The notes below the pieces were generated by a model, which had not been told where the DNA came from, searched no databases, and was given only the letters and a program-made list of their open reading frames with translations. Made by a program: the position numbers and the translations under genes. Positions 12,405 to 61,277 of a stretch of 64,000 nt of DNA are shown piece by piece; the stretch's first letter is position 1, and each line of letters opens with the position of its first letter. Source of the DNA: Eunapius fragilis (lineage: Eukaryota > Porifera > Demospongiae > Spongillida > Spongillidae); the NCBI GenBank assembly GCA_963681505.1, contig OY811993.1:3830489-3894488 (forward strand), written 5' to 3'.

Positions 12405-12687
12405 ACAAGTAAAGAAAAACATTCTCTGACGAGAAAGTTGGAGGTAGGAATTGGAGGCAAAGGTGGTGTAAAAAGGAGGGAACAAGGTTTTGAGAAAAGG
12501 GTAATGAGACAAAAATCCTATATTTAGCACGTGTAAATGTAACAGAACCAAAAGAAGTGCTAAATATAGGATTTTTGTCTCATTTTCCATTTCTCAAAAC
12601 CTTGTTCCCCTCCTTTTTACACCACCTTTGCCTCCAATTCCTATATCCCTCCAACTTTCTCGACAGAGAATGATTCTCTTTACTTGT
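12405..12687. mobile_element. Foldback MITE, family 1 (ACAAGTAAAGAAAAA ends)
   Basis: About 283 bp forming one long hairpin: arms of about 130 bp from ACAAGTAAAGAAAAACATTC inward to CCTATATTTAGCAC, with a loop of about 25 bp. The same family is seen at 17.9, 36.6, 43.0, 52.4, 55.2, 57.2 and 59.8 kb. Short open frames on either strand are by-products of the symmetry. Confidence 0.9.
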
Positions 12688-14313
12688 ATTTATATATTCT
12701 AGCCATCGGTCGGCCATGCATAAAATTAAACCGGGTATATGCTGTCCTGTGATAACAGTAAGTTGCAGAGCTTCTGGGAGTCACTGCAGTGTAATAGTTA
12801 ACAATTGTTGAGGGGTATAATCGTTGAGTGGTTCTCCGATCCCGCTATCGCCCCCCCCCCCCCCCGCCTTCCGGTTCCAAAACTTGAGCACACATATGAA
12901 CGCACGGAACACTGATTTTTGATGAGTACCGGGTAAGGGCATCACTAAATTCTATATGGCTACAAATACTTACCGCAACTCGATTTGCAGTTAACTGTTG
13001 CTGTAGTTTTAGAACTGTGGCAACTGTGTGTTTATATATTACGTTGTGACGTAAGTAAAATGTCGGAATGCCCCCTTTTTTGTTTCATCTCGGCCGGGCG
13101 GACCTCTCCCTTGCGGCAGAGTCACTGAAACGATACTTCCAGATAAGATTTCCCGATCTCGCACTGTTAAGTAAGCGGGTCTATGATCGATTATCTCTGA
13201 TTTCATATTAATATTTATTACTATGTCATACTTTGTCTACTACAACCAGCATACAAATATAACCAAATATGGTGATGTAGTGAGACCGAGGAGTTTTAAC
13301 ATAAGTAAATTCATAACATTGCGGATGCTTAGCATAAATGACCATATTAGTACACAAGTAAACGATCGATTTATATTGCCAAACAAGGATCAGATCGCAG
13401 TGCTGCGCGAATAGGTTTATATAATATATAGGTTAGCATTTTGCACGGTCATTCATTTCCTCGCTAGCATACGCGTGCTAGCGCTGGGTATGCAGGCTAC
13501 GTAAATGCCTATGCTATATGCATTACTCCGCGGGCTAGCACGCGTATGCATGCACGTGGGGTATTTGCTTGTTGCTGTTAATAATGTATAATTATACTAG
13601 CAATGTTACTGTAGCCTAGATCAATACATATATTTTTACATGTGTATAGCATAGCGTAATCACGTACCTATACACATGTTCTTGCAAGATCACGTATACT
13701 GAGCCCATGTAGCTAGCTTTGTCTTGTTTCAAGGTAGCGGTCGCTGTCGAGAACGGCTCTCTTTGGCAAATTATTTATTAAACTGACAATCCATCGGCTA
13801 CTGAAACACGGCAACTTGCGTTTCATCACTCAGTTTTTTAATGGTACCTGACAAACTGTATACTACTAAACCTATATTTAAACCGTGTCGTCAGTATATA
13901 TAGTCCTTCGACGATGCAGTGACGTAATAATTCGACAAATGGGAGGGGTGGTCATCATGGGAGGGTGATCATCATTAATATTTAGGGTGGTCGTAGGTGG
14001 GGTTCTAAACTAGTCACTTGTTGTACATGATCATGAAACGCTCTTACTGTTTAATTCGTTAGCATGCGGCGTGGTCGGTGAATTACCTTGCTTTGTGCTT
14101 GTACGGAGTTTACTTTATAACGTTTCTCATTTTGACTATAATAAGTATCTTACATGTGTAATGAATGCCACATGACGAGCCAAGGGGCTATTTCCGGTAT
14201 GAGTGTACTGTTCACTTCCATATTTGGTAATATAATTTATATCTACTACTAAAATTTCCAACGTACGTACGTACGTACGTCCGCGTAACTTATTTTATAT
14301 ACTCGGCCTAGCG

Positions 14314-14353
14314 CCTATTGGTTGCTAGGTACGCGTACCTAGCAACCAATAGG
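14314..14353. repeat. Perfect 40-bp palindrome, second copy
   Basis: Identical to the palindrome at 8,738-8,777, at the homologous place in duplication copy 2. Confidence 0.85.
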
Positions 14354-15045
14354 AATGACCACCTCACACAAAAGTACATAGCAACGACCATGCTTCCCAC
14401 AAAACCTACATGCCTGTACAGGAGGTAATAATGTCATCATCACATGCAGTAACAATTATAGCAACGCTATTGTGGTTCACTCTCATGCAAGTCTCATCGT
14501 ACAGGCCGAGAACATGTAGTTACTATCTAATTCTATTATTTCCAACGTACGTACGTCTGTACGTACGTCTGTACGTACGTCTGTATGTACGTCCGGACGT
14601 ACGTCCGTCCGTACGTACGTCCGCGTAACTCATTTATATACTCGGCCTAGCGCCTATTGGTTGCTAGGTATGTATTACTATGCCAGTATTGATATAACCA
14701 AATATGGTGACGTAGTGAGGATTTTTAACATAAGTAAATTCATAACATTGCGGATGCATAGCAGCATAAATGGCCATATTGGTACACAAGTAAACGATCG
14801 ATTTATATTGCCAAACAAGGATCAGATCGCAATGCTGCGCGAATAGGTTTATTATATTATATAGGTTACCATTTTGTACGGTCATTCATTCCCTGGCTAG
14901 CCTAGCTAGCGCTGGCATGCAGGCTACGTACATGCCTATGCTATATACGTTACTCCGCGGGGCTAGCACGCACGTGGGGTATTTGCTTGCTGCTGTTAAT
15001 AATATATAATTATACTAGCAATGTTACTGTAGCCTAGATCAATAC

Positions 15046-26686: not shown

Positions 26687-27610
26687 GCGCGTATATATAT
26701 GGGACAGGGTCTGAGAAAATGTCGTATCGCTATATATATTTTAAGTTATAAAAATGATTCACTTTGAAATCGCTACATCTCCCGAACCGTAAACGCTATT
26801 GACTTCCTATTTTCAACACTTCATACTACATCATTTCTCTCTGGTAAAATCGATTATGGGCTCTTGCATTAGCTTCGTCCCAGTGTTACAACGTCCGATA
26901 CCCCTTGGGGTTCAAATCCGCCATATCTTTCAGCAGGAAAATTCAATTCACTCCTAGTTTGGTTTGTACGTAGAGGGATCCTGTACCTATTGAATTTTTC
27001 TGTTCGTTAATTTTTTCTTTATCCGTTACGGGGATACAACTGTGCAAAGTAATTGCATATTTCCCGGTCGTTTCGCGCCATTTATCTATCGAGGACATGA
27101 ATATGCAATTACTTCCTGTTCAATAACTATGTCTCCGCCCATCTATACAATATACAACAAGTATGCGGCGTTTTCGCTTCTTGCAAACGTCTGGTTCTGT
27201 TTCCCTTCTTGGCTTCTTCAACATAGTGAGCAGAAGCTAAAGATTCGTAATACGTGGATTCAGCTGCCATCAGCCTGTGCAACACGGTACGTACTCTGTA
27301 GCGCATGCACGTAGAAATCGAGCGTGTTGGCTCGGTCAAACTGCTTCATTTATGCGTGCACAACGCTGCAGAGCATGAAATTGTACGGTGTGTAGGGCTA
27401 ACTTAATCTGAAACGCACCGTTCCTTTTTGACTTCTGCACACGCACAGATATATATATCAAACATGTACCCCCTTGTAGCTACATGTATTTACCAACATG
27501 TAGTACTCTCATTAGCCTATACTAAAACCACTTTCTTGTTTATTTATCTTCATTGGTGAACCAATTATATTTGGTTCTACAAAATAATATCCATACAAAA
27601 TAAAATCCAT

Positions 27611-27767
<157 letters not shown>

Positions 27768-29048
27768 CACACCCTGGCCTCACATTCATACACAACCTCA
27801 GATCAGAGCAATTGTGTCATTTAATTCTGTCAGAATGCTCCCTCATGCTTAGTTTCCAATTCGTGGTGTGCTTGGCATAGTTGATTGTTTGCCCAAAAGG
27901 GTCAGGCGACAGTGGGTGTGCTGTCCCCCTACCCTGAATGTGACTGGAACCAAGGTTACCATTTGGTCAGCCCACACCTTGATGCTGGTCAGGGTAAGGT
28001 GGTTAGGCCAGGGTAGAAGCCAAAAGGGTGCTACCTGCCATGGATGTATAAACAATAACACCTGTAGCAAATACATTTATAAGTACTGCCATGGTAAGCA
28101 ACGCAGCTGGCATTTAGCTGGAGTGATTGCAACCCACCTCTACCATCCTTTATATATACATGTGTGACCTGCAACCATACCAGGTGTCAATATTTTGGGG
28201 ACAGTGTGGGTATGATCGAAAGTGAGGGAATGAGTTAAATGGAGGCAAGGCTTTTCCAGACATTTAGGCTCAGGGCAGAATGAAAGTGAGGTTTTCCCAG
28301 AAGATACTCCAGGCTAGAATTTATATTTAGCTGGGAATTTAGTGTGCAATGGGCACTTATACACACACATGCACACTCACACACACACACACACACACAC
28401 ATGTACACACACCATGGGCAGTCAGTCATTCACGCATCAACATCAATGCTTTGCTATTTATTTCCTAATTGTCGACCCACATACAAACATTGTTTTTAGC
28501 TGTCATCCTATTCATCACATGTTTCTCTTTTGTATTTCTATTGGAGCCGTACCTTTGTCTAAATTGTCTTGTGTATCAATGTGCACGTTTATGCATGCAC
28601 ACACATACACACCACACACAAGCACTAGCATACACTTGCAACTGTGTTCACATGTTTATTGTTTGTGTAAATTTGTGTTTCCTTGCTCTGGCAATTACCA
28701 ACAGGTCTTCTTATTGCCTTTTGCACTGTTAAACATATGCATGCACATGCACACCTACACACACATGGACACAAACCCACATGCACATGCACGCACATTC
28801 ATGTATACACACAGGAGTCATGCTTCAATCACAAACATGTGCATATGTACACATAAAAATGGCTTTGGCAGTCATCCATCACACACACATACACACGCAC
28901 GCACACACACACATACACAGAACTGGCCTCTGCTTTGTATAAATTCCCTGTTGTCTCTTGTTGCTATGAGCACACTTACTAGATGTGAGCCTGCACTACA
29001 AGAATGCACACTTATGCACACAGGCATGCATGCACAAACACACACACT

Positions 29049-29094
29049 CAAACAAACAAACAAACAAACAAACAAACAAACAAACAAACAAACA
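29049..29094. repeat. (AAAC)n microsatellite, left arm
   Basis: AAAC units, mirrored as TTTG at about 34,004-34,050 in the right arm. Confidence 0.9.
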
Positions 29095-31229
29095 CTCACA
29101 CAAACAAGCACACACACACATACACAAGTGCAAACCACCCACTCTCCATCCTGCTTGGTACACTCACACTTGTACCTCCACCATTAGAACCTGTTGTCCT
29201 TAATTCACCTCATATGCAATTTTGATTTTCTTCTTCTGCTCCTGTTTGGCTTCCACTGATGTACCCATGGCCTCCACTAGATGCTCATGTCTCATCACCT
29301 ACACTAGATGCTCATGTCCCATGATTCTAAGTACTAACTTGTCAGGTTGATTAGCGCCAGCAGTACACAACCATGCCCATAGCCGTTGAGGTTTTCAATA
29401 TACAAGACATGTATCCAGGCTAAGAAGAATCTCCGATGCTATGGAGAGATAGTTTCTGAGCTGGCTTTCTGTGATTCCATTAATTGCCCTTCACCTTGAC
29501 CCATCCATGTCTGTGTGGACTCACCTCATGCCATAGGGGTTGACTACCCCCACCATTATGATAAGCCTGCTAACCACATTTAGGCTCAGTGATTTCCATC
29601 ACTGAAGCTCACCAGCTCAGTGTATTGTTAGAACCTTTGGTAAGGCTCATGGCTCTAGACCTGTCCACCACCTATCCAAACCCCTAACACTATACACAGC
29701 ATGGGCCACAAAGATCATAATTTTGCCTGTTTTATGACACCAATTATTATGATCTGGGGTGAGTGTTTCCATTTGTTGCTGAGTTCTATGGACAGAGGCA
29801 TCAGCTATAGACTGGCCTCTGCTTCACCTCCTTACACCTAGCTAATGGAATTTCCAGATGTCATTTAGAGATTGATGCTTGTGTTGTGTGTGTGTGTGTG
29901 CCTATGTGTGTTTTGTATGTGTTGTGTGTGTGTGTGTGAGCCTGTGTGATGTGATTGATACGTGTACTCTGGAAAAGGGCTTACAACATGTAGGGGTTGG
30001 AAGCCTTGCATGTCTGGCAGTGAATATCATTGCTACCCTATCACTACTGATAGTGGCTGGACTGGGCCTCTGTAAAGTTTGGATTGGATTGAGTGATAAT
30101 AGTATTCACACCATTACCATGAGTTTTACCAATACACACACATACCCACACAACACGTACAAAGCACATACATACATACATAAATGGAATTTAGATTTCT
30201 GAGGCAGCTTACAACTGATGCCTCTGTACCTTAGCAACATCCCCTGGGAAAACTTCACCTCCATTCAAATTCTACTAGCCCAGGAGCCACCCTCCAGTTC
30301 ATCCAGGGAGGAAGCACACAACGGAGCCACTCTCAAGGGAGCCACTCTTATAGGAACCACTCTCAAGGGAGCCACTCTTCTCCGGAGCAGACAGAGAAGC
30401 ATTACACTCAACAGCCCAGAGAGTACCCCCATGATCTCCAATAGGATATACCACTGACAACACCTTGGCTTGGCCAGCCCCTTGCCATTGGTGGGCCAGG
30501 CAATGCCTTGGGTTGGCCAGCCCATGCAATGGGATGGGCCGATAACATTAATGTTTCCAACCCAGAAACTTTGTATTGTACATGTGTGCCACGTGATTTA
30601 TATATGCTATTATAATGAATCAGTGTTCGATGAAGTACCACCTGAATTAATGATGTTATTCTATTCAGAACGAGGTTAAAAGAGACTGGACTGGAACATG
30701 GTATGGGGCAGTATTGGATTCCTTATGTTTTTAAGCAAGCTGACAGAATAAACATATTTTTGCAGGGACTTGGACATACATGTAACAATACCGCTGGCAT
30801 TGAATGTTGTTGGGAGGAATATCTGCTGTACACACAACACTAACACAGCTGCAGCTAGCAAAAGACGATTCCGCAAATGGGGAATGATAAGTACCCCAAT
30901 ACCACCTCCCTCACTTCTCAAACAACACTATAAACTTCCTATCAGCTGATTATGAAATTGAAAATACAATCTAACATTGCGCATTTCAGCATGAAGTTTT
31001 AAGCCCTTTGACAGATGGTGATCATAAATGATGCAGACATCAAACTTGAAAACAATACCTGCATCACACACACATGCACACACACACACTCACACACACA
31101 ATGAGAAGTGCAGAGTAAATGCCAAGGCGTACAGAAATGAGGTTTGAGTCATTGGTGTTGTCAGTGGTATATCCGACTGGAGATCATGGGGTACTCTCTG
31201 GGCTCTTGAGTGTGATGCCTAGAGCTCTG

Positions 31230-31762: not shown

Positions 31763-32966
31763 CATAGATTGAAGAATACCTGGATACGAAACGCGTCACG
31801 TGATCCATTGAATTGTCAATAGTAGGCGGCGGACCCTTTCAAGTGAACTGTGTTTCGGTTAACCCTTTTGTAGATTACGCTTTCCCCCCTACTTTCACTG
31901 CTGTTTAAGAGAAAAATCGAGATCTTAGGCATTCTTCGTACTCCCACTGATCTTGCTTTCCAGGTTAGTAACTATTGTTCATGCAAATCACTGAGCACAC
32001 TCTACGTAGGTACCGTATCTGTCATTTCCGCCTCTTCGGAACATATATCTCAGCTTAGAGATGCTTCCAACTATTCATTTCTAAAAGCAAAGCATTATGC
32101 TATTCCCTCTGTGGAACGAACGTATAGCCGTTGTAAGGGGCTTTAGCATGTGTGTACAACTGCCTGGTGAACAGGTCGCGGACCCACCGTGTTTCGGAAC
32201 ATAGTGTGTGAGTCAGACACACGCAACAAAGTCCAAATTTGTTTTTCAATGTTCAGAAAGAGTTGTTCTGTGGAACGCATACAACCAAAGGTGGACCAAC
32301 GTTATGCAAATGTCTTATAGAAGTTATAGTTGTGCGGGTTATTTTCATTAAATCGTCCCTGGACCGATATATGTTTCGGTACATCTCTTGCACGGTCAGT
32401 GCAAGCTACACTGTATATAGCACTTAGACACATCTACGCAGTTACTATGATCACTTGTAGGGAATGCACTTATAGTACTTAAAGTTGTGTAGTAGCTGAT
32501 TGAACAAATGCCTTGTAAGCACGATTGATGAATCGACTGCAGACCAATGACACAGAAAAAGCGTTTCCAAATAGGCGGCAATTCCATCAAACGTGCCTGT
32601 TTGAAACATCTGTAAGCTCTCTCTCTCTAGCTGAATGTGCTTTTATTCTTGGGTGATGTAGACAAGCTAGAATAGCCGAACGTAACCCGGCCACAGCAAA
32701 ATGTATTGAAAACAACGGACCAACGGTATCGGAAGTTGTAAGCAACTCGTTAAGAGGATCTGTTTTGGCCTGTGTTTCAGGTATCTTACTGTCTGTAATC
32801 GTTACCTGTATCGCTCGTATTATGCTCGTATTATGGCAAGTCAGTTTCGGCCCTTGGTAGGCTATCTCTTTATAAGTTTAATTTTACACCAAATGTGTCA
32901 CGTGCCGAAACGCGGATCATTTCTAATTATCTCCGCGTTTCGTATCCAGGTATTCTTCAATCTATG
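31763..32966. mobile_element. 1.2-kb TIR element inserted in right arm
   Basis: The ends begin CATAGATTGAAGAATACC and stay perfectly inverted for 33 bp. GTAAAAC is duplicated on both sides (31,756-31,762 and 32,967-32,973). The uninterrupted left arm gives the empty site, GTGTATTGGTAAAACTCATG when read on the minus strand. The 7-8 bp duplication suggests a hAT-like mechanism. No transposase is seen. The interior has several GTTTCGGAAC-like motifs. Confidence 0.88.
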
Positions 32967-35332
32967 GTAAAACTCATGGTAATGGTGTGAATACTATTAT
33001 CACTCAATCCAATCCAAACTTTACAGAGGCCCAGTCCAGCCACTATCAGTAGTGATAGGGTAGCAATGATATTCACTGCCAGACATGCAAGGCTTCCAAC
33101 CCCTACATGTTGTAAGCCCTTTTCCAGAGTACACGTATCAATCACATCACACAGGCTCACACACACACACACAACACATACAAAACACACATAGGCACAC
33201 ACACACACACAACACAAGCATCAATCTCTAAATGACATCTGGAAATTCCATTAGCTAGGTGTAAGGAGGTGAAGCAGAGGCCAGTCTATAGCTGATGCCT
33301 CTGTCCATAGAACTCAGCAACAAATGGAAACACTCACCCCAGATCATAATAATTGGTGTCATAAAACAGGCAAAATTATGATCTTTGTGGCCCATGCTGT
33401 GTATAGTGTTAGGGGTTTGGATAGGTGGTGGACAGGTCTAGAGCCATGAGCCTTACCAAAGGTTCTAACAATACACTGAGCTGGTGAGCTTCAGTGATGG
33501 AAATCACTGAGCCTAAATGTGGTTAGCAGGCTTATCATAATGGTGGGGGTAGTCAACCCCTATGGCATGAGGTGAGTCCACACAGACATGGATGGGTCAA
33601 GGTGAAGGGCAATTAATGGAATCACAGAAAGCCAGCTCAGAAACTATCTCTCCATAGCATCGGAGATTCTTCTTAGCCTGGATACATGTCTTGTATATTG
33701 AAAACCTCAACGGCTATGGGCATGGTTGTGTACTGCTGGCGCTAATCAACCTGACAAGTTAGTACTTAGAATCATGGGACATGAGCATCTAGTGTAGGTG
33801 ATGAGACATGAGCATCTAGTGGAGGCCATGGGTACATCAGTGGAAGCCAAACAGGAGCAGAAGAAGAAAATCAAAATTGCATATGAGGTGAATTAAGGAC
33901 AACAGGTTCTAATGGTGGAGGTACAAGTGTGAGTGTACCAAGCAGGATGGAGAGTGGGTGGTTTGCACTTGTGTATGTGTGTGTGTGCTTGTTTGTGTGA
34001 GTGTTTGTTTGTTTGTTTGTTTGTTTGTTTGTTTGTTTGTTTGTTTGTTTGAGTGTGTGTGTTTGTGCATGCATGCCTGTGTGCATAAGTGTGCATTCTT
34101 GTAGTGCAGGCTCACATCTAGTAAGTGTGCTCATAGCAACAAGAGACAACAGGGAATTTATACAAAGCAGAGGCCAGTTCTGTGTATGTGTGTGTGTGCG
34201 TGCGTGTGTATGTGTGTGTGATGGATGACTGCCAAAGCCATTTTTATGTGTACATATGCACATGTTTGTGATTGAAGCATGACTCCTGTGTGTATACATG
34301 AATGTGCGTGCATGTGCATGTGGGTTTGTGTCCATGTGTGTGTAGGTGTGCATGTGCATGCATATGTTTAACAGTGCAAAAGGCAATAAGAAGACCTGTT
34401 GGTAATTGCCAGAGCAAGGAAACACAAATTTACACAAACAATAAACATGTGAACACAGTTGCAAGTGTATGCTAGTGCTTGTGTGTGGTGTGTATGTGTG
34501 TGCATGCATAAACGTGCACATTGATACACAAGACAATTTAGACAAAGGTACGGCTCCAATAGAAATACAAAAGAGAAACATGTGATGAATAGGATGACAG
34601 CTAAAAACAATGTTTGTATGTGGGTCGACAATTAGGAAATAAATAGCAAAGCATTGATGTTGATGCGTGAATGACTGACTGCCCATGGTGTGTGTACATG
34701 TGTGTGTGTGTGTGTGTGTGTGAGTGTGCATGTGTGTGTATAAGTGCCCATTGCACACTAAATTCCCAGCTAAATATAAATTCTAGCCTGGAGTATCTTC
34801 TGGGAAAACCTCACTTTCATTCTGCCCTGAGCCTAAATGTCTGGAAAAGCCTTGCCTCCATTTAACTCATTCCCTCACTTTCGATCATACCCACACTGTC
34901 CCCAAAATATTGACACCTGGTATGGTTGCAGGTCACACATGTATATATAAAGGATGGTAGAGGTGGGTTGCAATCACTCCAGCTAAATGCCAGCTGCGTT
35001 GCTTACCATGGCAGTACTTATAAATGTATTTGCTACAGGTGTTATTGTTTATACATCCATGGCAGGTAGCACCCTTTTGGCTTCTACCCTGGCCTAACCA
35101 CCTTACCCTGACCAGCATCAAGGTGTGGGCTGACCAAATGGTAACCTTGGTTCCAGTCACATTCAGGGTAGGGGGACAGCACACCCACTGTCGCCTGACC
35201 CTTTTGGGCAAACAATCAACTATGCCAAGCACACCACGAATTGGAAACTAAGCATGAGGGAGCATTCTGACAGAATTAAATGACACAATTGCTCTGATCT
35301 GAGGTTGTGTATGAATGTGAGGCCAGGGTGTG

Positions 35333-35473
<141 letters not shown>

Positions 35474-36605
35474 CGTATGGATTTTATTTTGTATGGATAT
35501 TATTTTGTAGAACCAAATATAATTGGTTCACCAATGAAGATAAATAAACAAGAAAGTGGTTTTAGTATAGGCTAATGAGAGTACTACATGTTGGTAAATA
35601 CATGTAGCTACAAGGGGGTACATGTTTGATATATATATCTGTGCGTGTGCAGAAGTCAAAAAGGAACGGTGCGTTTCAGATTAAGTTAGCCCTACACACC
35701 GTACAATTTCATGCTCTGCAGCGTTGTGCACGCATAAATGAAGCAGTTTGACCGAGCCAACACGCTCGATTTCTACGTGCATGCGCTACAGAGTACGTAC
35801 CGTGTTGCACAGGCTGATGGCAGCTGAATCCACGTATTACGAATCTTTAGCTTCTGCTCACTATGTTGAAGAAGCCAAGAAGGGAAACAGAACCAGACGT
35901 TTGCAAGAAGCGAAAACGCCGCATACTTGTTGTATATTGTATAGATGGGCGGAGACATAGTTATTGAACAGGAAGTAATTGCATATTCATGTCCTCGATA
36001 GATAAATGGCGCGAAACGACCGGGAAATATGCAATTACTTTGCACAGTTGTATCCCCGTAACGGATAAAGAAAAAATTAACGAACAGAAAAATTCAATAG
36101 GTACAGGATCCCTCTACGTACAAACCAAACTAGGAGTGAATTGAATTTTCCTGCTGAAAGATATGGCGGATTTGAACCCCAAGGGGTATCGGACGTTGTA
36201 ACACTGGGACGAAGCTAATGCAAGAGCCCATAATCGATTTTACCAGAGAGAAATGATGTAGTATGAAGTGTTGAAAATAGGAAGTCAATAGCGTTTACGG
36301 TTCGGGAGATGTAGCGATTTCAAAGTGAATCATTTTTATAACTTAAAATATATATAGCGATACGACATTTTCTCAGACCCTGTCCCATATAATTATATAT
36401 ATACAATTAATAATATTATAGTGCATGCATTATTGTGGGTCCCCCCCCCCCCCCTCGCCTCCCCTCTCCCCTTATATCCACTACTGGTCTCATGACTGGC
36501 CCGGACTTCAGTGTGCGACGTAGGTAGTATGCATATCAAAAATGGGGAAGAGGCTAGTGTGGAACACAATCAGAAACTTGAAATTGTCTCCAAAACTTAC
36601 AAGTT

Positions 36606-47323: not shown

Positions 47324-48827
47324 TTAATGAATATATGTCTTCTGGAGGTCTATGTACATGTTCTCTCCTGCCTCCAGAGGTGCACCAAGGGTCCCTGCTT
47401 GGGGGTGGGTGAGGCGGGCTTCATCTTTAATCTTAAGCACAAGCTCAGTGGACTGGCTCAGAGACAGGCAAAGCTCCCGAAAAGTTGACCGGGAATGTGT
47501 TTCAGGGTTCCTGTGTGACCACCACACATTTGCCCAGCCAGCATTTAATTAACTAGCAAATTTGAATGAGTGGTTTAACTGTACATGTAGTGTGCAGCAT
47601 GTACTAATGCAATGATGTGTACAGCATACAGTTATGCAGAGTTATGCATGTGACACTGAATACTACATTCTGTCATGCAGTGGCATGCATGAACCCATCC
47701 CACATACCAGCATTGGATCATCAACTGGTAGACCAGAAGTGGACATCCTGGGGGAGGAGGGAGTCTGTACCCTGAATCAATCTTTTTAACCACCTTATAT
47801 GGAACAAGCACTTTTAGATATTGATGAATCAAATGGATCGATTTATTTACCTCTGAGTTACCAAGTCCTTCAAAAGGCTTGGTCCCCATACTCCATATCT
47901 CGTACAGCAGACATCCATAGCTCCACACATCACTGGCAGTGGAGTACTTCTTGAAGTGGATAGCCTCAGGGGCTGTCCACTTGACTGGAATCATTCCTCC
48001 ATGGGAAACATAGTATGTGTCATCAGCCAGGTCACGTGAAAGTCCAAAGTCAGCAATCTATGGGTTAAAATTTACAATCAACCATTTCTACTATGAAGGA
48101 TACCTTGCATATGCAGTCCTGTGTAACAAGTATGTTCCTTGCAGCAAGGTCACGATGGACAAAGGACTTATTAGAGAAATACTTCATCCCAGCAGCTGTC
48201 TGCTTGGAGTATGTTAGCAAGCTTGAGTACAGGTCTTGGTGGACCAGCTGACCAGGGCTGAACATTCAATAGTTAATTAATTCATAATGATGCTTGTATG
48301 TGGCAAACATACTCTGGCTTCAAAGTATTCAGATGTGTCCTCAGGTCATTTTTATGTGCCAGTTCAATTACCAGCATGACCTGTGGATTATGATAATGTA
48401 CTAGTATGTTCACATAATAAGATCACCTACTGGTTCCCCATCAGTGACAATACCATAGAGCTGAATAACATTAGGATGTCTGAACTGGGCCATGATGGCT
48501 GCCTCCTGTAGAAACTTGACCTTTGCATCTGGCTGGGTTACTGTTGAGTTGAGTGTCTTGACAGCAACCTCACACCTTCCTTTGGATCCATTCCATATTC
48601 CTATTTGGACCCCACCAAACTGACCACTTCCAAGCATCTTGGTTGTGCTATCCATGAATGGGTGATACATGTAAATAATGATTTGCTATGGATGTGAGGG
48701 TCTATAATACGTTTCCATACATGATGCAATGTCGTGGAATCTTCTTTATTCTTTGGTTCTCCAGTTGAATATACAGATCTTCCTCATGTGATGCAGGCAT
48801 GTAGTATGGGTTCTCATCTTCTGTCAT
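47324..48827 (-). CDS. RTK-2 kinase half, intact catalytic domain without receptor link
   Basis: Seven exons match RTK-1 in length and phase: 48721-48827 (from ATG), 48431-48647, 48313-48380, 48104-48257, 47851-48057, 47708-47793, 47324-47510. Together they encode 341 aa from [13 protein letters not shown] to the tail [34 protein letters not shown] and APE are all present. In RTK-1 the first of these exons starts eight codons earlier; here that part and its acceptor are replaced by unrelated sequence with an in-frame TGA just before the ATG. The exon therefore cannot be joined in frame to the juxtamembrane exon at 53,104. It may be translated from its own ATG as a soluble kinase, or be decaying; the lack of stops argues that any break is recent. 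Confidence 0.75.
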
Positions 48828-49103
48828 CGATCAGGATTAACCTAAAACCAGGGTTGGGCATGCAATATGTTTGCATGAGCTATACTTATTCAGACGATGT
48901 GTATTATCCAGGGTGTGCAAAGGTGCTTTGTAGCAGTACAAGTAAGACATATACCGGTATTTTAACACCGGTTCCGTGAGAATCGAATGTTTTTTTGGGC
49001 TATTTTGTCGAACTCTAGTTCTAGGAAATTACCGGTAGTCGGACGACGTTTTTTAGTCACAAAAGCATAAGGACCTAGTAGTGAAACTCTCTGCATGAGG
49101 GTT

Positions 49104-50385
49104 CAGGCCCGTAGGCTGGGGGGGTTCCCTGGGTTCCCGGGAACCCCCCCGCCTGTCATGGATTAGTTCCGGCCACCCCATGCACTCCAAGATTAATTTT
49201 TATCATCCACTTTAACTAATTTAACGCCTAGGGGTATTGAGAAATATATTTGTTGTTCTTATAATTTTATTTGCATATCGTCTGTTGAACGGTTTCACCA
49301 AAATATACACAGGGGAAAAAATCACGTTCCGGACCTTGAGTTTTACCCTATCCACCTTGGGATCTGTTCCATCAAATGTATTTAAAATGCCTAAGTCAAC
49401 AGTGAATACATTTGATGGACAAGGTTGATAGGATAAAACCCAAGGTCCGGAACACGATTTTTTTCCCCCTGTGATATATGCGCATTTGCCTCTATTGCTA
49501 CGTTGGCTTAACTAGCACTGCTCATGCACTGCTGCTTACTCCGTTGTTTTTGATATAAAACGGCCGGAACAGAGGGAAAGAGAATGCAATTGATCTGCTA
49601 AATTGTGCAAATAAAGTCTTTTGACAGCTTTTTCAAGAAACGGAAAATGGCTGAAAACTGTACCAAAAGTGCAGCGACTTTCACTTTGCCAGAAGGCGAA
49701 GCTACATACTCCAATAGTAGTTTGCAACTGCCCGATGACTATCAAATGTCACTCAAACTCCAAGTGAAGTCAGTAGTAGATGTAGATGTAGATAGTGAAT
49801 GCCTTCAAAATAGATAATTATGTCCAAGCGGAGTCACACTTCCTTCAAAGCACTGCAAATGACATTGGAAAGCTCGTAAATGACCATTTATCTCCCAGTG
49901 AAGTTACACAAGCTATAGGGCGACTATATATCAGGAGAGAATGGTCTTATGCGTCACTTTTTGGTCCTATATCTACGTCCAGCGATTTGGAGCCAGAAAA
50001 CGATTGTCTGAAGCAAGCTGAATGGGAGATCAAAGCATTGCATGTCGAGCTCTGCCCAGATAAGACCCATGCATACTAAAGAAAAGTACATATATTATTT
50101 ATGACTGAATTGCAAACTTCATATTGCATGTGCCTATAAGCTAGATCGTGATTCTTCATACATGGGTCTTCCGGCTATAGAGATACAATAATTGCACATA
50201 ATCTCTTCCTTCGTATCAGTATCGGCTGCGTAAACAAAGTGCATCCACCGCTGGTGTGTCCTGTGTGAGAGTGGGGGGAGGGGTTGTCTGTGGGATTCAG
50301 TGATTCAGGTGGTAATATGTATAATAATAGTTCCAGGTTTAATGATTAAGGAACCCCCCCAGTTTAAAACCAGCCTACGGGCCTG
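49104..50385. mobile_element. hAT-like element, 1.28 kb, nested
   Basis: Ends CAGGCCCGTAGGCTGG and CCAGCCTACGGGCCTG; GGGTT on both sides. Inside, an open frame at 49,605-49,817 begins with KSFDSFFKKRKM, which resembles the N-terminus of TTF-type hAT transposases. A second frame at 49,795-50,079 follows. The catalytic region is missing, so it is non-autonomous or truncated. Confidence 0.7.
49308..49473. mobile_element. 166-bp foldback MITE nested in hAT element
   Basis: CACAGGGGAAAAAATCACG at the left and its near-complement at the right, with arms continuing through TTCCGGACCTTG and ATCAAATGTATT. ATATA occurs on both flanks. Confidence 0.8.
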
Positions 50386-50463
50386 GGGTTTGCGCTATTT
50401 CTAGCGTCGTATATACTTCCTGTCGTAACCAGCATCGTTTTTAGTCAAACGGTTGGAAGCTTA

Positions 50464-50703
50464 GGGGGCGTCTCCAAACTATTTAACGTCATTGTGACGT
50501 TTCATTATTACCCCCCCCACCCCCCCCCCCCCCCCCCTGATAACGTCATTGATATCGTAGGGAGTCCGGACGCCATTTTTTTGGCCAGCACATCGGAAAA
50601 CGTCACGAGCCTGAACCCCCCCCCCTCCCCCCCCCTCCCCCCCCCCCCCCCCCCCAACGTCAAAATGGCGTTAACTTTTCCAAAATAGTTTGGAGACGCC
50701 CCC
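50464..50703. mobile_element. PIF/Harbinger-type MITE
   Basis: GGGGGCGTCTCCAAACTATT at the left and its inverse at the right; TTA duplicated at 50,461-50,463 and 50,704-50,706. A TWA target duplication with G-rich termini is typical of PIF/Harbinger. The interior is C-rich homopolymer. Confidence 0.8.
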
Positions 50704-51344
50704 TTAATTCACAGATTAAACAGAGATAATATATAATTATCTCTGGATTAAAGTACACTTTTTTTCTGAAGCCTTTTCTAACATAGAAAGCGGTCCCAAT
50801 ATGCTTACCTTTGTAAGATGTGTCGGTTTTGTACATATTTAGACCGTCTAACTGTATACGAGCGCTGAAACCAGCACTTCTTATTATGTCGATCTTTGTG
50901 GCCGAGTTCCCAGACCGATGTACTATTCCGCGGGTGTCGAATATAAGTCTTATGCGTGCGCTATTTTCCATTTGTATACAGTCATATATAGTAGAGTTCA
51001 TAGTACACATCAGAACATATATATATCATCACTGCTGCTAAACAGAAGCTGCTTGCCATGTGCTCTGTCTGTTACTCGCTCTGGCTTATTTCCCGTCTTT
51101 TCGATGTAGTGGTGGCTGCAGAGATATACCTCCAGTTCCACTTGGAGAGATCTTTTTCCATATCCAAATGCTCAAAGCTTATCCTTGCCTTCCAGTGCTC
51201 CCTTCAACACTTGATGCTATACCCTCATGCAGATTTCCTATACACACTGCTGGCAGTGGAACATTACTCAAATCTGATTATGGCTTGCTGTCATATGACT
51301 TTGAATATTATTGGCAGGACAGCAAGTCATGGCCATGTGCTTGG

Positions 51345-51720
51345 CCATGTGTAGCCATATGACAGCAAGCCACAGCCATGTGCAGTCACCTGACAGCAAG
51401 CTACAGCCATGTGCAGTCACATGACGGCCATGTGCAGTCATATAGCTACAGCCATGTGCAGTCATATGACAGCAAGCTACAGCCATTGGCAGTAATATGA
51501 CAGCAAGCCACAGGCATGTGCAGTCATATGACAGCAAGCCACAGCCATTGGCAGTAATATGACAGCAAGCCACAGGCATGTGCAGTCATATGACAGCAAG
51601 CTTCAGTCATGTGCAGTCATATAACAGCAAGCTACAGCCACTTGCAGCCATATGACAGCAAACCACGTGCATGTGCACTGCAGCAGTCATATGAAAGCAA
51701 GCCACAGCCATGTCTGACCT
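51345..51720. repeat. CATATGACAGCAAGCCACAG minisatellite
   Basis: Irregular units of about 30-36 bp built from CCATGTGCAGTCATATGACA and GCAAGC(C/T)ACAG. Cys/His-rich open frames across it are periodic artefacts. Confidence 0.88.
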
Positions 51721-52412
51721 TCAAAATGTGTGCCTGAGATTCCAACTTCATGTCTATCTGGGTTATGCCCGATCTACACATTCGGGATTTTACCGATCTG
51801 GTGATGGTTCAGAATTAGACAAAGCTATTGCCTTGCTTGGCTGACCACGCTTACTTGGATGCCACATGCAGCACTTTACTTGCTACACGCTGGCTTCTGA
51901 GTTTATTTTGCGCATGCGCAAAATAATCAATGTAAGTCTGGGTACGAGTTTTTGTACCAAACAGAGCGTAAACTATCGGAAGTCTCGCTAGAGAGACTTC
52001 CATATAGGTTTTGACCCCGACTATGAATTTAATTAAAATCCCGCGACCCTACCGTAGCTTCGCTCCCGACGATCGGATCGTCTAACTTGTTGCGGCAATA
52101 GATCTAGAAGTCAAAACTGAGTAGTTTCGTTTTTGTTTCACGTCGTAGAACCGCGTGGTTGTCGAGAACGAAAAATGCTGCTATCCTCGTTCCCCTTCCA
52201 AAAATAATGGGCGGGTCGTCTTCTTCTTCTTGAGAACTCATAACTCGGGACAGGAACCCTTTTAAGCAATGAAAATTGCACCAATAGCTTTAGAATTTGC
52301 TGGAGGACTCGCTTTTAGGCTTTGATACACAAAAGCCTAAATGCCTATATACGGTCTTATCAAGTCTAATTTAGCAAAAGCACCTATTTGGGTGTTAAAA
52401 AAAAGTAAGGAA

Positions 52413-52707
52413 ACAAGTAAATAAAAACTTTCTCTCTGAAAACGTTGGTGGGATATAGGTTTTTGCAGGCAAGTAATATACTGGTGTAAAAAGCAAGGAA
52501 ACAAGTTTTATCCGTAGGGAGAATGTAATAGTCCTATATTTAGCACAGAAACAGCAAATGCCTTAGTCGAAGTGAGCTAAATATAGGACTATTACATTTT
52601 CCCTTCGGATAAATCTTGTTTCCTTGCTTTCTACACCAGTATATTATTTGCCTGCAAAAACCTATATCCCACCAACTTTCTCAGAGAGAATGTTTTTATT
52701 TACTTGT
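52413..52707. mobile_element. Family 1 foldback MITE
   Basis: ACAAGTAAATAAAAACTTTC at the left and TTTTTATTTACTTGT at the right, with arms meeting around CCTATATTTAGCAC. The arms are well matched, so this is among the younger copies. Confidence 0.9.
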
Positions 52708-53103
52708 GGCAAATATGCTAGCTATGAACATGCTATTCACTTGGCCTTTATTTGGTATCTAGAAGAATCTAAAAATACCATCAGATTTTGTTGAAATGCG
52801 ATAGGGAAAAAAGTGTACCGATCAGCTTTCGAACATCAAAAAACGGGAGTTTCACCCGATACAAGTATGTTGGTGTATATGCCACAAAGCTAAAATTTAT
52901 ACCAAATGGCTCATCGAGATTTGGCCTATCAGAAAATATGCTTTCTAAAGCAAAAAAAAGCTTTTCCGACTAATTTTCCAAAAGGTCGGTCGATAAAAAA
53001 TATTCGATTCTCACGAAAGCGGTGTTAAGCACTTGGTATAGGGATATCAGTTGTAACACTTATTGTCTTGTGTTTATGCATATTGTATATTTAACATATT
53101 CAC

Positions 53104-56021
53104 CTGTACATGAGAAGTAGTGTACATGTTATCCCCATTGCTTGGGACCTCATATGTAATGGGCTGTGAAGAGATTCAGACTTTGTAAAGTTCTTTGCAC
53201 TATTGCTGTGAAATCTAAAATTAATGTAAAGTCTTTAGTTGAGAATGTGTATGAAGTTGCATAATTCTCACCTGCTGTGCACCAACACTATGTGCACCAG
53301 ACCTTTCTGGAATCTCATATGCAGCCTGAGCCTCACGTGAAGTGTGGGTGAATTCATTATCTCTTACAGGTTCATAAATGGCAGAGGTACCAACATTGTT
53401 ACTTCCAATGGTAACATTGGTAGTGGTGGGGGAGTACATCACATTGTCTGCACAAAGAGAAAAAATGTTTTTATTATCTTTATTTATCATACTGTAAAGT
53501 AGTGTTAATTATTTTGAGGTACTTATGTTCTTTGATGTACCTATAGCTGAGTCTTGGCCTGTGGATATTCTTAGTTTACTTGCATATCTCCTTCTCCATA
53601 GCACAATGCCAATAGTTGTAGCTGTGGTCACTGCTATGGCCATGATGACAACAATGATGACACTAGCAACAGTTGCTGGAGATGATTGTTCTTGTGCTAA
53701 GAGGTTTGACATGATGCAACCTATCATACCAGTGATTCTGAAAAATACACACATACGTAATACAGAGGACACAACTGATTGTTGGACTGCTGGAACATTG
53801 TTTGTCACTAAACGCCATTCTGTCTGACATTGTAAAATAATATATCATAATGAAGGTATGAGATGTTCTTGCAAATATACCTGTATGGTTAATGACCAAG
53901 AAAATATTTTTGGAAAGTTTTTATACACTAATTGCATTCCAAATATATAATTGATTGCACTGAATTAAAGATGTAGAGGGGGGAGAAGCGGGGACATTTT
54001 GGGATACGAAGAACGTATTAATGCAAACATATCAGAACCAACAATTGTGCTATTAAACAAGCTTTATCTAACGTGGCATAGGAACTATTCATAATACATG
54101 TGGACATGTGCATCTCATGAAGTAAAGGTGTTCTGAGGGGTATTGCCTCATGTAAGCTATATTGTGGGTGTGGCATATAGTGGCATTGTGAAGATGTGCA
54201 CCACATCGTACCCATAGCAATATTGGAGAAGTTGGCTCCAGCAACAGTAACACTATTAGAGGTGGAGATATCTGGATCAGGTGTGGTAGTAGCTGCAAAA
54301 GAACAAGAGATGGCATTGGGAAAATGTGTACAATAACTTACCCATTACAATATTGGATGAGGTAGCTCCACCAACAGTAGACAGAGGACCAGAGGTGGAG
54401 ATATCTGGAGCAGGTGTTGTAGTAGCTGCAAAAGTACAAGAGATGGCATTGAGGAAATATGTACAATAACGTACCCATTACAATATTAGATGAGGTGGCT
54501 TTAGCAACAGTAGACAGAGGACCAGAGGTGGAGATATCTGGAGCAGGTGTTGTAGTAGCTGCATAAGTACAAGAGATGGCATTGGGGAAATGTGCACAAA
54601 AACTTACCCATTGGAGAGCACCAACAGCAGGCAGAGGACCAGAGGTGGACATACCTGGAGCAGGTGTGATAGTAGCTGCCAAAGTACAAGAGATGGTATT
54701 GGGGAAATGTGCACAATAACAATAATAATATTGCTCCATCATCACACCAAAGTAATAAAATTATAGCATACCAACAGTTTTACTTACTGAATTAAGAGAT
54801 TAAAATCTCAATGAATGGCTTCCATTTTAGCAGCAATTTATATAATCTGTTTTAATAACAAATATCCTTTCAAGTTAAACGAACTCTAATAATAAATCTA
54901 ACATGAACCAAGTGGTGGCTAGGTCTAGACACTTCCTCTGACTCTCCCTGTGCTGGGGATGATGCCTTGCCACCAGACATAAGGAACCCAAGGCCAAGGT
55001 GGTTGCTGGACTATATAGTCACTTCAACATGACTCTGGTTTGGTGCATAGCCACATGAGGCTTTCTCTTGATGCTGCATAACTATTTGTGATTTCAATTA
55101 TTACCTAATGAAAGTTATATATGTGTATCAATCCATTGTATCTAAAAAACATGAAGAAACCAGTGTTGTACATGTATGTGGTAGAATAGGTAATAAGTAT
55201 TTTGGGACAAGTGATAAAAACTGTCTCTACGACAAAGTTGGTGGTATATAGGAATGAAAGGCTATAAAAAGAGGTTAACTGACTGGGAAGCTAGGAAAGC
55301 TATATTAGCATGTGCACGTCATTTATTTACATCGTGTGCTAATATGGTTCATTTCATTTTTCCTTCCCAGTCAGTAAATCTTGTTCCTTACACCATTACA
55401 ACCTTTCATTCCTATATACCATCAACTTTCTCATACAATTTAGATACTGTTTTCATCAATTGTTTCATTTTTTTTTTGGAATTCTTATGTTTCAGTTTAT
55501 TTTAAATTACACTAAATTTTTGTACCATGAAATCATAAAAGAAATGGTATATCAGGAAAGTAATTTTTTTATCAATGTGATAAGAATGTCATCATGCCAC
55601 ACTAGTTGGGTATAACCATACAGTTGTGAGTGAGGACAGGTGGTCATTACATCAACATAGTGCTAATGTGGGAATAATCGAAGAGACTTACTAATGCAAT
55701 TTAACCCATCTGATTGCCACTTTGAGAGTAAAAACTTTGGTCAGCCATAGTGGGTGGATTGGTTACATTCAAGTTATATCCAAATGTACCACATGACGCA
55801 CTCCAGTGACCTGCAATTGGAGAGATAGCATTTAAAAAGAGCACGATGTAATGAAACCAAGACCTGCACAAGGGATCAGTGCATCAAGGAGATGTAGGGT
55901 CAGCATGGTCATGTGGTTGTATTAATAAATGGGTGCTCGCAATGCACAAATTGTCTCCACCTTTAACAAATGTACATAGAAGAACCAGAACTCCAAGTTG
56001 AACATGGCTGGATGCATTCAT
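53104..56021 (-). CDS. RTK-2 receptor half (signal peptide, short ectodomain, stalk, TM, juxtamembrane)
   Basis: Exons in phase with the paralogues: 55961-56021 (MNASSHVQLGVLVLLCTFVK), 55706-55810, 54475-54558, 54342-54425, 54212-54292, 53541-53696, 53272-53447, 53104-53163; 269 codons without a stop. The ectodomain exon keeps only 34 codons (HWSASCGTFGYNL..) and ends at a weak GTTAAA donor; the rest of it and the EGF exon were lost in a deletion of about 560 bp relative to RTK-3. A stalk exon at 54608-54675 has a 16-bp deletion that breaks phase and would have to be skipped. Membrane helix ASVIIVVIMAIAVTTATTIG. The juxtamembrane part holds YEPV, YEIP and YEVP. Read-through past the last exon would stop after nine codons, leaving a kinase-less receptor. 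Confidence 0.7.
55207..55449. mobile_element. Family 1 MITE in RTK-2, shared with RTK-3
   Basis: ACAAGTGATAAAAACTGTC at the left, arms through GTTGGTGGTATATAGGAATG and its inverse. A homologous copy lies in the corresponding intron of RTK-3 (59,819-60,050), so it inserted before those genes duplicated. Confidence 0.8.
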
Positions 56022-57600: not shown

Positions 57601-60600
57601 TTATTTGGAGTTTGAAGATACACTTGGATCTCGCACATGTGTTCCATAGGCTTCATTTGCAGATACGCGTGGATCTTGTACATGTGTTCCATAGGCTTCA
57701 TTTGGAGATATTTTTGGATCTCGTTCATGTGTTCCATAGGTTTCATATGGAGATACACTTGAATCTCGTACATGTATTAAATAGGCTTCATTTGGAGATA
57801 CACTTGGATCTTGTACATGTGTCCCATAGGCTTCATTTGGAGAAATAAAAGTGTGCGCTCCATTTTGTTGCATCATGGTTTCCTTTGAACTTGTAATGGT
57901 AACAGTAGCAGTGGCAGCCGAGCACCTTACATTGTCTGAAATAAATAAACGAAAGGTGAGATCCAGATTAATTTTTGCTCTAATACCTTTAGTAATGCAT
58001 TGTTCTGCCCTCATTTTAACACATTTCTGTCGCCTTAGCACAATGATCGTAGCTGCAACTGTGGTCACAACAACAGCGATGATGAAGACAATGGTGATGG
58101 TACTAACAAAAATCCCTAGAGATGATTGTTGTTGTGCTGAAATTTGAACGAAACATTTTATCATAGCAGTTACATATGAACTACAGAATGAAATACAAAT
58201 TCCTATGTAGAAATTATATTATTTGTCAATGAACTACTTTGATATGTAGTCAAGCTGATTGCAACTATCACAAGCAGTGACGAGTGCTAATTGGGGGAGG
58301 TATATTTAGTTTGGAGAGGGGGGGGGAGGTAGGTTTAGTGGTTTAATTTTCTCTCCCCTTGGGTATGCAATGGCATTAATGAATATACTTATATAACTGA
58401 CAAAAGGGTAAGGTTAACAATAATAGTTACACATGCAGTGTGATTGACAGAAAGGAAATATTTTTGTAGCATGCTAGTTCTCCTGAGAAGAGATCAGGTG
58501 AAAGCAGCAATGAACTCCCTCAAGGGGACAAGACAGGAAAGTAGTATTGGTCAAATACAAAACTTGATGGCATAGATATGAGTTGAAGCATCAAACATAT
58601 AAATATATGGAACAATGTCAAGCAAAATCACCCTGGAAAATTTGATACGGGGATTTTGCTGGACACTGTTCCATTACTGTAGTAATCACATTCTGAATAA
58701 TAAACATTGATGTATATCAAAATTAAAATTAGTTTGGTTTAGGATTTGAACAAAATTGGGGGTGGATAGTGGAGTGAGGAAAATATTTATTTGACGTCAA
58801 ATACGCTTTCGAATAAGCTATGTAATGCATTTGTCCAATGAGGAAATAGTCCTAATGCATGTGGAAATGTAATGCAGGTTCAATCAAGATCAATGGTAAA
58901 AATGTATAGTGGTTACATGCGAAATTATAAAATGGTACTTTCAGGAAAGGCACACAAGAGCTTACTTGAAGCAATAGCAGGTGTGGTAGTAGCTGCAAAT
59001 TACAAGGAATGGCATTGGGGAAATGTGTACAATAACTAACCCATTGCAATATTGGATGAGGTAGCTCTAGCAACAGTAGACAGAGGACCAGAGGTGGAGA
59101 TACCTGGAGCAGATGTGGTAGTAGCTGTAAAAGAATAAGAGATGGCATTGGTGATATAACTTACCCATTGCAATATTGGAGGAGGAAGCTCTAGCAACAG
59201 TAGACAGAGGACCAGAGGTGGAGATATCTGGAGCAGGTGTGGTAGCTGCAAAAGCACAAGAGATGGCACTGGGGAAATGTAAACAATAGCTTAACCATTA
59301 CAATATTAAAATATGCATACATATAATATTGCTCCATTATCATATATTTCATCTAAATAATATATAGCATACCAATAATTGTTTTACTTACTGAATTAAG
59401 AGACTAAAATCTCATTAATGGCTTACCTTTTAGCAGCAATTTATATAACCTGTTTTAATAACAAATATTCTTTCAAGTTAAGTGGACTCTAAAAATGAAC
59501 CAAATAGCCATCAGGTGGTGGCTAGGTCTAGACACTTCCTCTGACTCTCCTTGTGCTGGGGATGATGCCTTGCCACCAGACATAATGAACCCAAGGCCAA
59601 GGTGGTTGCTGGACTATATAGTCACTTCAACATGACTCTGGTTTGGTGCAAAGCCACATGAGGCTTCTTTTTGATGCTGCATAACTATTTGTGATTTCAA
59701 TTATTACCTAATTACAGTTATGTATTAAACTGTATCAATGTATCTAAAAAACATGATGTAACCAGTGTTGTACATGTATGTGGTAGATAAGGTAATAAGT
59801 ATTTTGGGACAAGTGATAAAAACTGTCTCTACGACAAAGTTGGTGGTATAAAGGAATGAAAGGCTATAAAAAGAGGTTAACTGACTGGGAAGCTAGGAAA
59901 GCTATATTAGCATGTGCACATCATATATTTACTTTGTTCGCTAATATGGTTCATTTCATTTTTCCTTCCCAGTCAGTAAATCTTGTTCCTTACACCATTA
60001 CAACCTTTCATTCCTATATACCACCAACATTCTCAAAGAGACAGTTTTTTATTATTTTATTTCTGATGTTTCAGTTTGTTTAAAATTACATTTAATTATT
60101 GTACCATCAAATCGTAAAAGGTATCGTATATTAGGAAAGTAATTGTTTTTTGCTCAATGTGATCAGAATGTCATCATGTCACACTAGTTGGGTCGTAGCC
60201 AGACAGTCGTGAGTGAGGAGCAGGTGATCATTGTTCTGATCCATATCCTTTCTATGTGCATTATTGAGCTATATTTAGCATATTATGTTATTTCATCAAC
60301 ATAGTACTAGTGGATGAAGAATTAAAAATTCTTACGGACACAGTTGTATCCTGATGATGTGTCATTGCATATCTGACCACACCCTCCATTGTTGACTGCA
60401 CATTCATTCACATCTATAATGGTGGCACCAGGTACATGTCTATGTAATAGGGAAAGTGCTTGTTAACATACCAAGACTGATGAGAAGAGTGAGACCTTGC
60501 TGAACACTGTATTGATCTGTCTTTATTTGTGATGAACAGTCCAGATTACCATTGTTGTATTTCACTGATGATCCAGACACATTTGCTGCAATACGCAAAC

Positions 60601-61277
60601 CATTTTGTGGTATGCATCCTACAAGAATGTCATTCTTCATGACCTTAAATTGAGTTGATGAAGTGTTTATGCAAACATAGCCAGGTGGTGTTGTAGGTAT
60701 GTTCTGATAACTAGCTGAGATTGTAATTGTTGACACTCTGTCATATTTTCCATTACTACAACTACGACCACCAGTGCATTGTCTGTACACAGCAAGAGTG
60801 GCAGATGTTGAACCAATGGTAGGAGAGTAGCACACATTCCATCTTGTGGCAGTTCCATCACACTGCAGTGGACTTCCCACACCAAAGAATATACCACTTT
60901 GGGAGTAATAACTTTGGGCAGCCATAGTGGGTGGATAGGTTACATTCAAGTTATATCCAAATGTACCACATGATGCACTCCAGTGATCTGCAATTGGAAA
61001 GATAACATTAACATGACTTATTCTTATTTAAGCCAATACCTCAGTGGGTTGCTGTGTATATGTATATTGTATGCAAACATTCTACTTATGGCCTCGCGAA
61101 CAGATTATCTCAAAACAAAAAAAAATGTATGAAAAAAACAACTGCAACATATCACAATATTTGATGGCACGTGAAATTAGAATATGAAATCACACTGGAG
61201 ATTGATATAACTCCACCTTGTATAGTTATGCACAGAAGAACCAGAACTCCAAGCTGAACATGGCTGGATGCATTCAT
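57601..61277 (-). CDS. Kinase-less RTK paralogue with five tyrosine repeats in its tail (RTK-3)
   Basis: Eight exons, all phases consistent: 61217-61277, 60472-60987, 60336-60413, 59165-59245, 59041-59124, 58966-58992, 57987-58136, 57601-57935; 443 aa. Signal peptide MNASSHVQLGVLVLLCITIQ; ectodomain 21-192 with scattered Cys (no family recognised); a partial calcium-binding-type EGF 193-218 (VNECAVNNGGCGQIC); stalk exons built on PAPDISTSGPLSTVA; membrane helix about 291-316; tail 333-443. The tail exon starts DNV like the juxtamembrane exons of RTK-1 and RTK-2, then repeats SPNEAYGTHVQDPSV five times, placing Tyr at 369, 384, 399, 414 and 429. No kinase exon follows before the next gene. A decoy receptor or phosphotyrosine scaffold is inference. 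A second ATG immediately upstream at 61,280 is possible. Confidence 0.88.
57605..57850 (-). repeat. 45-bp coding tandem repeat in RTK-3 tail
   Basis: Five in-frame units of 45 bp, then a sixth unit disturbed by a 7-bp insertion (TCTTCAAACTCC in place of TCTCC) that brings in the stop. Faint units continue to about 57,545 out of frame. Confidence 0.9.
58609..58672. mobile_element. 64-bp family 2 MITE derivative
   Basis: GGAACAATGTCAAGCAAAAT then GGATTTTGCTGGACACTGTT, with only about 20 bp between. It sits in an RTK-3 intron. Confidence 0.75.
59819..60050. mobile_element. Family 1 MITE in RTK-3 intron
   Basis: Orthologous in position and sequence to the copy at 55,207-55,449 in RTK-2. Confidence 0.8.

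What the first reader, a model, noticed from the sequence alone, without database searches (positions are those of the whole stretch)
57601..61277. Intact receptor that traded its kinase for five tandem tyrosine motifs
RTK-3 keeps the signal peptide, ectodomain, stalk, membrane and juxtamembrane exon order of the kinase paralogues, and every splice phase closes on a 443-aa frame. The juxtamembrane exon has been expanded by a 45-bp tandem repeat giving Tyr exactly every 15 residues (369 to 429). No kinase exon follows. This is what a phosphotyrosine scaffold or an inhibitory/activating co-receptor, phosphorylated by a paired kinase paralogue, would look like. The exon homology and periodicity are seen; the signalling role is inferred.
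Basis: partly seen in the sequence, partly recalled or inferred. Interest (0 to 1): 0.82.

Follow-up and report, generated by a model that had tools for sequence, protein, structure and literature searches.

The report
Kinase-less sponge receptor with tyrosine array
A sponge gene cluster holds cell-surface receptors in two versions with much the same outside part, one ending in an enzyme and the other in a string of repeated tyrosine motifs, which looks like an early animal counterpart of the paired receptors of our immune system.

Summary
Four tail-type genes were found, all open, with 5, 2, 4 and 9 tyrosine units. Ephydatia muelleri has a like tail (units such as SPNEAYGIHTRD, 18-residue period) on the same ectodomain family. 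Tail-type ectodomains are not one clade: copy D pairs with kinase gene I (96.3%) and the Ephydatia tail protein with an Ephydatia kinase receptor (85.4%), against 31% across species; the match ends after the EGF. Copy D is a kinase/tail recombinant. I read this as a paired-receptor system: kinase receptor plus kinase-less phosphotyrosine docking partner. Expression, phosphorylation and binding partner are inferred; codon-level selection on the array is not seen, and for this gene the pairing itself is weak (81.8%).

The parts
61217..61277 (-). exon 1, signal peptide (MNASSHVQLGVLVLLCITIQ)
   Evidence: same exon in B, C and several kinase genes
60472..60987 (-). exon 2, 172-residue Cys-containing ectodomain, no Pfam match
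   Evidence: 71-82% identical to kinase-bearing F and H and to tail-type B and C
60336..60413 (-). exon 3, truncated EGF (4 of 6 cysteines)
   Evidence: FXa_inhibition 20.8 bits, below its cut-off of 33.4
59165..59245 (-). exon 4, Ser/Thr-rich stalk unit
   Evidence: stalk units also in kinase genes
59041..59124 (-). exon 5, second stalk unit
58966..58992 (-). exon 6, short stalk exon
57987..58136 (-). exon 7, transmembrane segment and basic stretch, tail-type
57601..57935 (-). exon 8, juxtamembrane start, tyrosine array and stop codon
57625..57849 (-). five 45-bp units of the SVSPNEAYGTHVRDP type; Tyr codons at 57828-57826, 57783-57781, 57738-57736, 57693-57691, 57648-57646
   Evidence: coordinates by arithmetic
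47330..53697 (-). context: neighbour RTK-2, kinase-type membrane exon, juxtamembrane exon and kinase exons; possible partner or alternative 3' end
55704..55808 (-). context: RTK-2's ectodomain remnant, joined by a deletion to sequence like the end of the EGF exon

Best explanation
The gene encodes a type I membrane co-receptor of a sponge paired-receptor system. SHOWN: the cluster carries receptors with one ectodomain family and two alternative 3' halves, one with a tyrosine kinase, the other with an array of NEAYG-type motifs; in copy D the halves were joined by recombination in the intron before the membrane exon; in D/I and in Ephydatia a tail-type and a kinase-type receptor share a nearly matching ectodomain; the tail motif recurs in Ephydatia. 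INFERRED: both forms bind the same ligand or each other, ligand brings them together, the kinase form (or a Src-like kinase) phosphorylates the array in trans, and each phosphorylated NxxY(G) unit docks a PTB- or SH2-domain adaptor, so that 2 to 9 units set the gain of the kinase receptor's signal (or, with a phosphatase-bearing adaptor, its brake).
For: Four tail-type genes, each one open frame to the array's end. Gaps between A and C in the coding part before the array: 7 of 9 are multiples of three, the other two (11 and 28 nt) lying where the exon sets differ; in three introns and one flank 4 of 15 (hypergeometric 0.0019 without those two, 0.021 with them as failures). Ephydatia P0001 has the same ectodomain-EGF-TM-tail order, and its TM-tail as query finds only the four tail loci below E 0.01 in 219 Mb. 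Copy D: 97.4-98.5% identical to kinase gene I through ectodomain and EGF, then similar to copy C. Ectodomain tree of ten rows: D with I and Em1 with Em2, both 100/100; at least three label changes forced, 0% of 200 bootstrap trees with one origin; one clade of tails rejected, p-AU 1.8e-50 (5 rows) and 4.9e-44 (4 rows). Gene I shows Gly loop, VAVK, HRDLAARN, DFG and APE. Scored without the Tyr column, 21 in-frame units: Tyr in 20, His in 1; Asn at -3 in 20; Gly at +1 in 20.
Against: No transcript or protein evidence. Within 20 Tyr-bearing units 24 distinct changes are nonsynonymous and 7 synonymous (22.6% against 29% expected), so no purifying selection is seen; membrane plus juxtamembrane part has dN/dS 0.62-1.01 over 6 pairs. 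Ectodomain A has dN above dS against B, C, F, H (1.4-2.1; synonymous deficit P 0.008-0.24 by pair and kappa), which fits diversifying or relaxed selection; kinase pair F-H also has 1.42. This gene's ectodomain is no nearer to kinase F (81.8%) than to tails B and C (81.9% each), so the close pairing is seen for D and Ephydatia, less for A. Gap control: the A-B flank has 3 of 5 in multiples of three, A-B coding 6 of 8, B-C coding 4 of 4. All four C-termini differ from the end seen past the stops: a shared frame change in A and C, a one-base loss in B, an inserted element in D. Two EGF cysteines lost in A. P0001 is a fused gene model and the only tail-type protein found outside this genome.
Confidence: 0.55

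Rival explanations
1. Decoy or dominant-negative receptor: losing the kinase is the point (ligand sink or dead dimer partner) and the array is a passenger minisatellite.
For: Neutral-like changes in the units; unit number 2 to 9; minisatellites open in several frames occur elsewhere in this genome, six of six fetched stretches.
Against: A like core motif with another unit length in Ephydatia; Tyr in 20 of 21 in-frame units, while units past the stop codons of A and C, read in the unit's own frame, have His or Asn there.
Confidence: 0.2
2. Alternative 3' ends: the A ectodomain exons are spliced either to their own membrane-tail exons or to the downstream RTK-2 membrane-kinase exons, so one locus makes both forms.
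For: All introns of A are phase 1; RTK-2 has signal exon, stalk, TM, JM and kinase exons, but its ectodomain exon is deleted into its EGF exon; the kinase gene after copy B has a 4-bp loss in its ectodomain.
Against: RTK-2 keeps its own signal exon; copy D is followed by kinase gene I with a complete ectodomain exon; no RNA data either way.
Confidence: 0.15
3. Decaying duplicate: a truncated receptor on its way to pseudogene, kept open by chance.
For: Kinase neighbours are often broken; a simulation that puts all pair differences on the A ectodomain leaves no stop in 2-12% of runs; altered C-termini; EGF truncation; a diverged kinase fragment 6 kb downstream of D.
Against: Four of four tail genes open; in-frame gaps; recurrence in Ephydatia.
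Confidence: 0.1

Closest known systems
Vertebrate paired receptors (Siglec-11/16, PMC5701461; Xenopus CEACAMs, PMC5112662; abstracts and outlines seen)
   Same: Near-identical ectodomains on different cytoplasmic tails, likeness kept by recombination, Tyr motifs in a tail (CEACAM), change-prone ectodomain.
   Different: Partner here is a tyrosine kinase receptor; motif is NxxY(G) in tandem, not ITIM/ITAM; no Pfam ectodomain match; opposing signals and co-expression unknown.
Sponge kinase receptors of the same ectodomain family (Ephydatia P0002, EMCRGX_G016406; genes F, H, I, E here)
   Same: Ectodomain, EGF, membrane and juxtamembrane order; signal peptide in P0002, F and H.
   Different: They go on to prekinase and kinase exons; kinase-type and tail-type membrane segments are 37-47% identical in the cluster's tail genes.
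Multi-Tyr docking proteins such as p130Cas, LAT, CDCP1 (recalled, from no call)
   Same: Row of Tyr motifs as kinase substrate and adaptor dock.
   Different: No sequence relation tested; I know of no kinase twin with the same ectodomain for them.

Membership tests
Receptor tyrosine kinase | cytoplasmic tyrosine kinase domain | tested here: not met
   for A, B, C no same-strand kinase hit before the next receptor gene; for D none in L029, but a diverged fragment of two kinase exons (61 and 72% identity) 6 kb downstream in L035
Receptor tyrosine kinase | homologous ectodomain, membrane and juxtamembrane exons | tested here: met
Paired receptors | near-identical ectodomains on different cytoplasmic tails | tested here: met
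   D-I 155 of 161, Em1-Em2 140 of 164; weaker for B-F 153 of 172, C-F 151 of 172, A-F 135 of 165
Paired receptors | recombination or gene conversion keeps partners alike | tested here: met
   (D/I junction; tails not one clade); repeated conversion over time not tested
Paired receptors | shared ligand, same cells, opposed or coupled signals | not testable with these tools
   no expression or binding data
ITIM/ITAM receptors | [SIVL]xYxx[IVL] or YxxL/I (recalled) | tested here: not met
   0 in A, B, C, D and the Ephydatia tail
PTB-docking tails | NxxY | tested here: met
   4, 2, 4, 9 and 6 sites in A, B, C, D, Ephydatia; any PTB binding is inferred
PTB-docking tails | strict NPxY (recalled) | tested here: not met
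   0 in all five tails

The most novel reading that the evidence does not exclude
Sponges carry a paired-receptor system, at least as old as the split between this sponge and Ephydatia, in which a kinase receptor and a kinase-less tyrosine-array co-receptor share an ectodomain that is kept matched within each genome by recombination; the change-prone ectodomain and array copy number would suit self/non-self or microbe recognition.
Probability: 0.45. Interest if true: 0.88.

Novelty: new variant of a known kind. Interest (0 to 1): 0.77.

Why it matters
Paired receptors are known to me mainly from vertebrate immunity. The same layout in sponges, built from a receptor kinase and a Tyr-array twin, would place tail swapping on recognition receptors near the base of animals and gives a concrete candidate locus for sponge recognition. 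It is testable at once: RNA, co-expression, and a kinase assay on the array. None of the nine paper searches listed a report of it; most were broad, the library lacks most subscription journals, and apart from two outlines and one set of passages I saw only listings and abstract starts.

Tried and rejected
Whole-genome matches of the unit elsewhere (93 at E 1 or better) looked like more arrays. I read six stretches, on C3 (two), C20, C21, C4 and C6; all are unrelated minisatellites open in several frames, a warning that an open repeat proves little. The other non-C23 matches were not read. The C23:4165 gene looked kinase-less in the printed list but has kinase exons. I first noted ten Tyr units in D (and before); it is nine plus one with His. 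The scan asked for Tyr in every unit, so its 20 of 20 is by construction; one search recounts without that column. The codon test inside the array gave no purifying signal. AlphaFold of the ectodomain was weak (mean pLDDT 59) and Foldseek had no match at E 0.001 or better, so no fold is claimed. PDB profile hits fit the EGF and kinase parts of the aligned proteins. A signal exon for D was not among the exons found. Tail search with P0001 gave only the query itself among 195 candidates. B and C stalk exons were chosen by me; weaker stalk remnants were left out.

Full report
What is there. The window is C23:3830489-3894488 of a 219-Mb, 24-contig genome. The named database relatives are Ephydatia muelleri proteins, so I take it for a sponge. 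The finding's model is right to the base: eight exons, seven phase-1 introns, 443 aa, Tyr every 15 residues from 369 to 429. The EGF exon is 45 nt shorter than in B and C and lacks the last two cysteines.

A family of four. The membrane-tail part occurs at four places on C23: A (this gene), B (4054.7-4047.0 kb), C (4064.4-4061.1 kb), D (4126.5-4124.0 kb). Each gives one open frame with phase-1 introns: 443, 371, 424 and 432 aa; D lacks a located signal exon, so its first phase is assumed. Scored without the Tyr column there are 21 in-frame units (5, 2, 4, 10): Tyr in 20, His in D's last; Asn at -3 in 20, Gly at +1 in 20, the whole core NEAYGxHx[RQ]D in 14. Units past the stop codons of A and C, read in the unit's own frame, have His or Asn at that place.

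Kinase sisters. In the 260-kb stretch read I count ten sets of kinase exons by the DFG exon. Five of them carry a trace of this ectodomain: F without a break seen; H with a complete ectodomain exon but a 2-bp gain in the kinase; G with a 4-bp loss in the ectodomain; RTK-2 with most of it deleted; one at 3980.9 kb with a C-terminal piece. Outside the stretch genes I and E have ectodomain and kinase exons. So kinase genes here are often broken and tail genes four of four open; assembly errors are not excluded. Downstream of D, before gene I, a diverged fragment of two kinase exons lies on the same strand, perhaps a relic of D's former 3' half.

Module exchange. D is 97.4-98.5% identical to kinase gene I from upstream through ectodomain and EGF exon; a last 83% block ends near C23:4125550, and similarity to C begins near 4125505 (positions by arithmetic). 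A matches F, G and H through the stalk exons but not beyond, save part of the membrane exon at 71-75% and one stray 75-bp match to H; B against F, G, H and C against G behave alike. The tail exon starts like gene I's juxtamembrane exon, so the tail looks like a juxtamembrane exon that gained an array and a stop.

A second sponge. P0001 of Ephydatia (Em0008g877a) is a fused model: a kinase fragment, then a receptor with signal peptide, ectodomain, EGF, membrane segment and six tail units, five with Tyr and one with Cys; the full core NEAYGxHxRD is in two of the six. It aligns with D over 409 columns at 35%. Its TM-tail as query finds only the four tail loci below E 0.01 in this genome. P0002 is an Ephydatia kinase receptor sharing 140 of 164 ectodomain residues with P0001; the similarity fades right after the EGF, as in D/I. 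The ectodomain tree (ten rows; G, P0003 and P0004 left out: a frame break, the ORF of gene E itself, a partial ORF) pairs D with I and Em1 with Em2 at 100/100, forces at least three label changes and rejects one tail clade. Five of its seven inner branches are open, and A, B, C, F, H are unresolved.

Selection. Before the array, A-C coding gaps are in frame in 7 of 9 cases against 4 of 15 outside exons. Pairwise dN/dS of the ectodomain is 1.4-2.1 for A against B, C, F, H, 1.42 for kinase pair F-H, 0.65 for B-C, 0.44 for D-I (ten changes), 0.3-0.6 for deep pairs. The synonymous deficit for A is modest (P 0.008-0.24). Membrane plus juxtamembrane part 0.62-1.01. Inside the array no purifying signal appears. 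The case for function therefore rests on recurrence and on the motif shared with Ephydatia, not on codon statistics.

Mechanism. Best reading (0.55): kinase-less partner of a paired system, its array phosphorylated in trans and read by PTB or SH2 adaptors. Motif definitions are recalled. NxxY is met; NPxY, ITIM, YxxL/I and YxN are not; B's shifted end adds one YxxM. Rivals: decoy, alternative 3' end with RTK-2, decay.

Literature. PMC5701461 and PMC5112662 (abstracts and outlines) describe paired receptors whose ectodomains are kept alike by gene conversion. PMC8662651 (passages) names a sponge-specific kinase family and nothing like this in the passages seen.

Noticed in passing
window 26696-30131 and 32965-36391: A 3.4-kb inverted repeat at 99.5% identity around a 2.8-kb spacer.
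   Followed up: no
window 5128-9244 and 10479-14820: Direct segmental duplication in pieces, 89-96% identical.
   Followed up: no
L029 about 5260-5580 and L026 about 170-520: A like inserted element with long C/G runs sits behind the same kind of unit in the arrays of D and C, as if inherited or copied with the tail module.
   Followed up: partly
C23:3904.2-3910.5 kb and 4034.3-4039.2 kb: Kinase gene H has a 2-bp gain in the HRD exon and kinase gene G a 4-bp loss in its ectodomain exon.
   Followed up: yes
L035 6717-7001 (C23:4117717-4118001): A diverged fragment of two kinase exons between copy D and gene I.
   Followed up: partly
G000 C10 4.3-5.3 Mb, C15 6.0-6.1 Mb, C1 2.11 Mb: Distant copies of the ectodomain; kinase exons are listed nearby on C10 and C15.
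   Followed up: no
L030, C23:4160915-4161199: Gene E has its prekinase Tyr stretch repeated about three times.
   Followed up: no
P0003: An ENA contig ORF has the letters of gene E's ectodomain exon ORF, so this sponge's DNA seems to sit in another public assembly.
   Followed up: no
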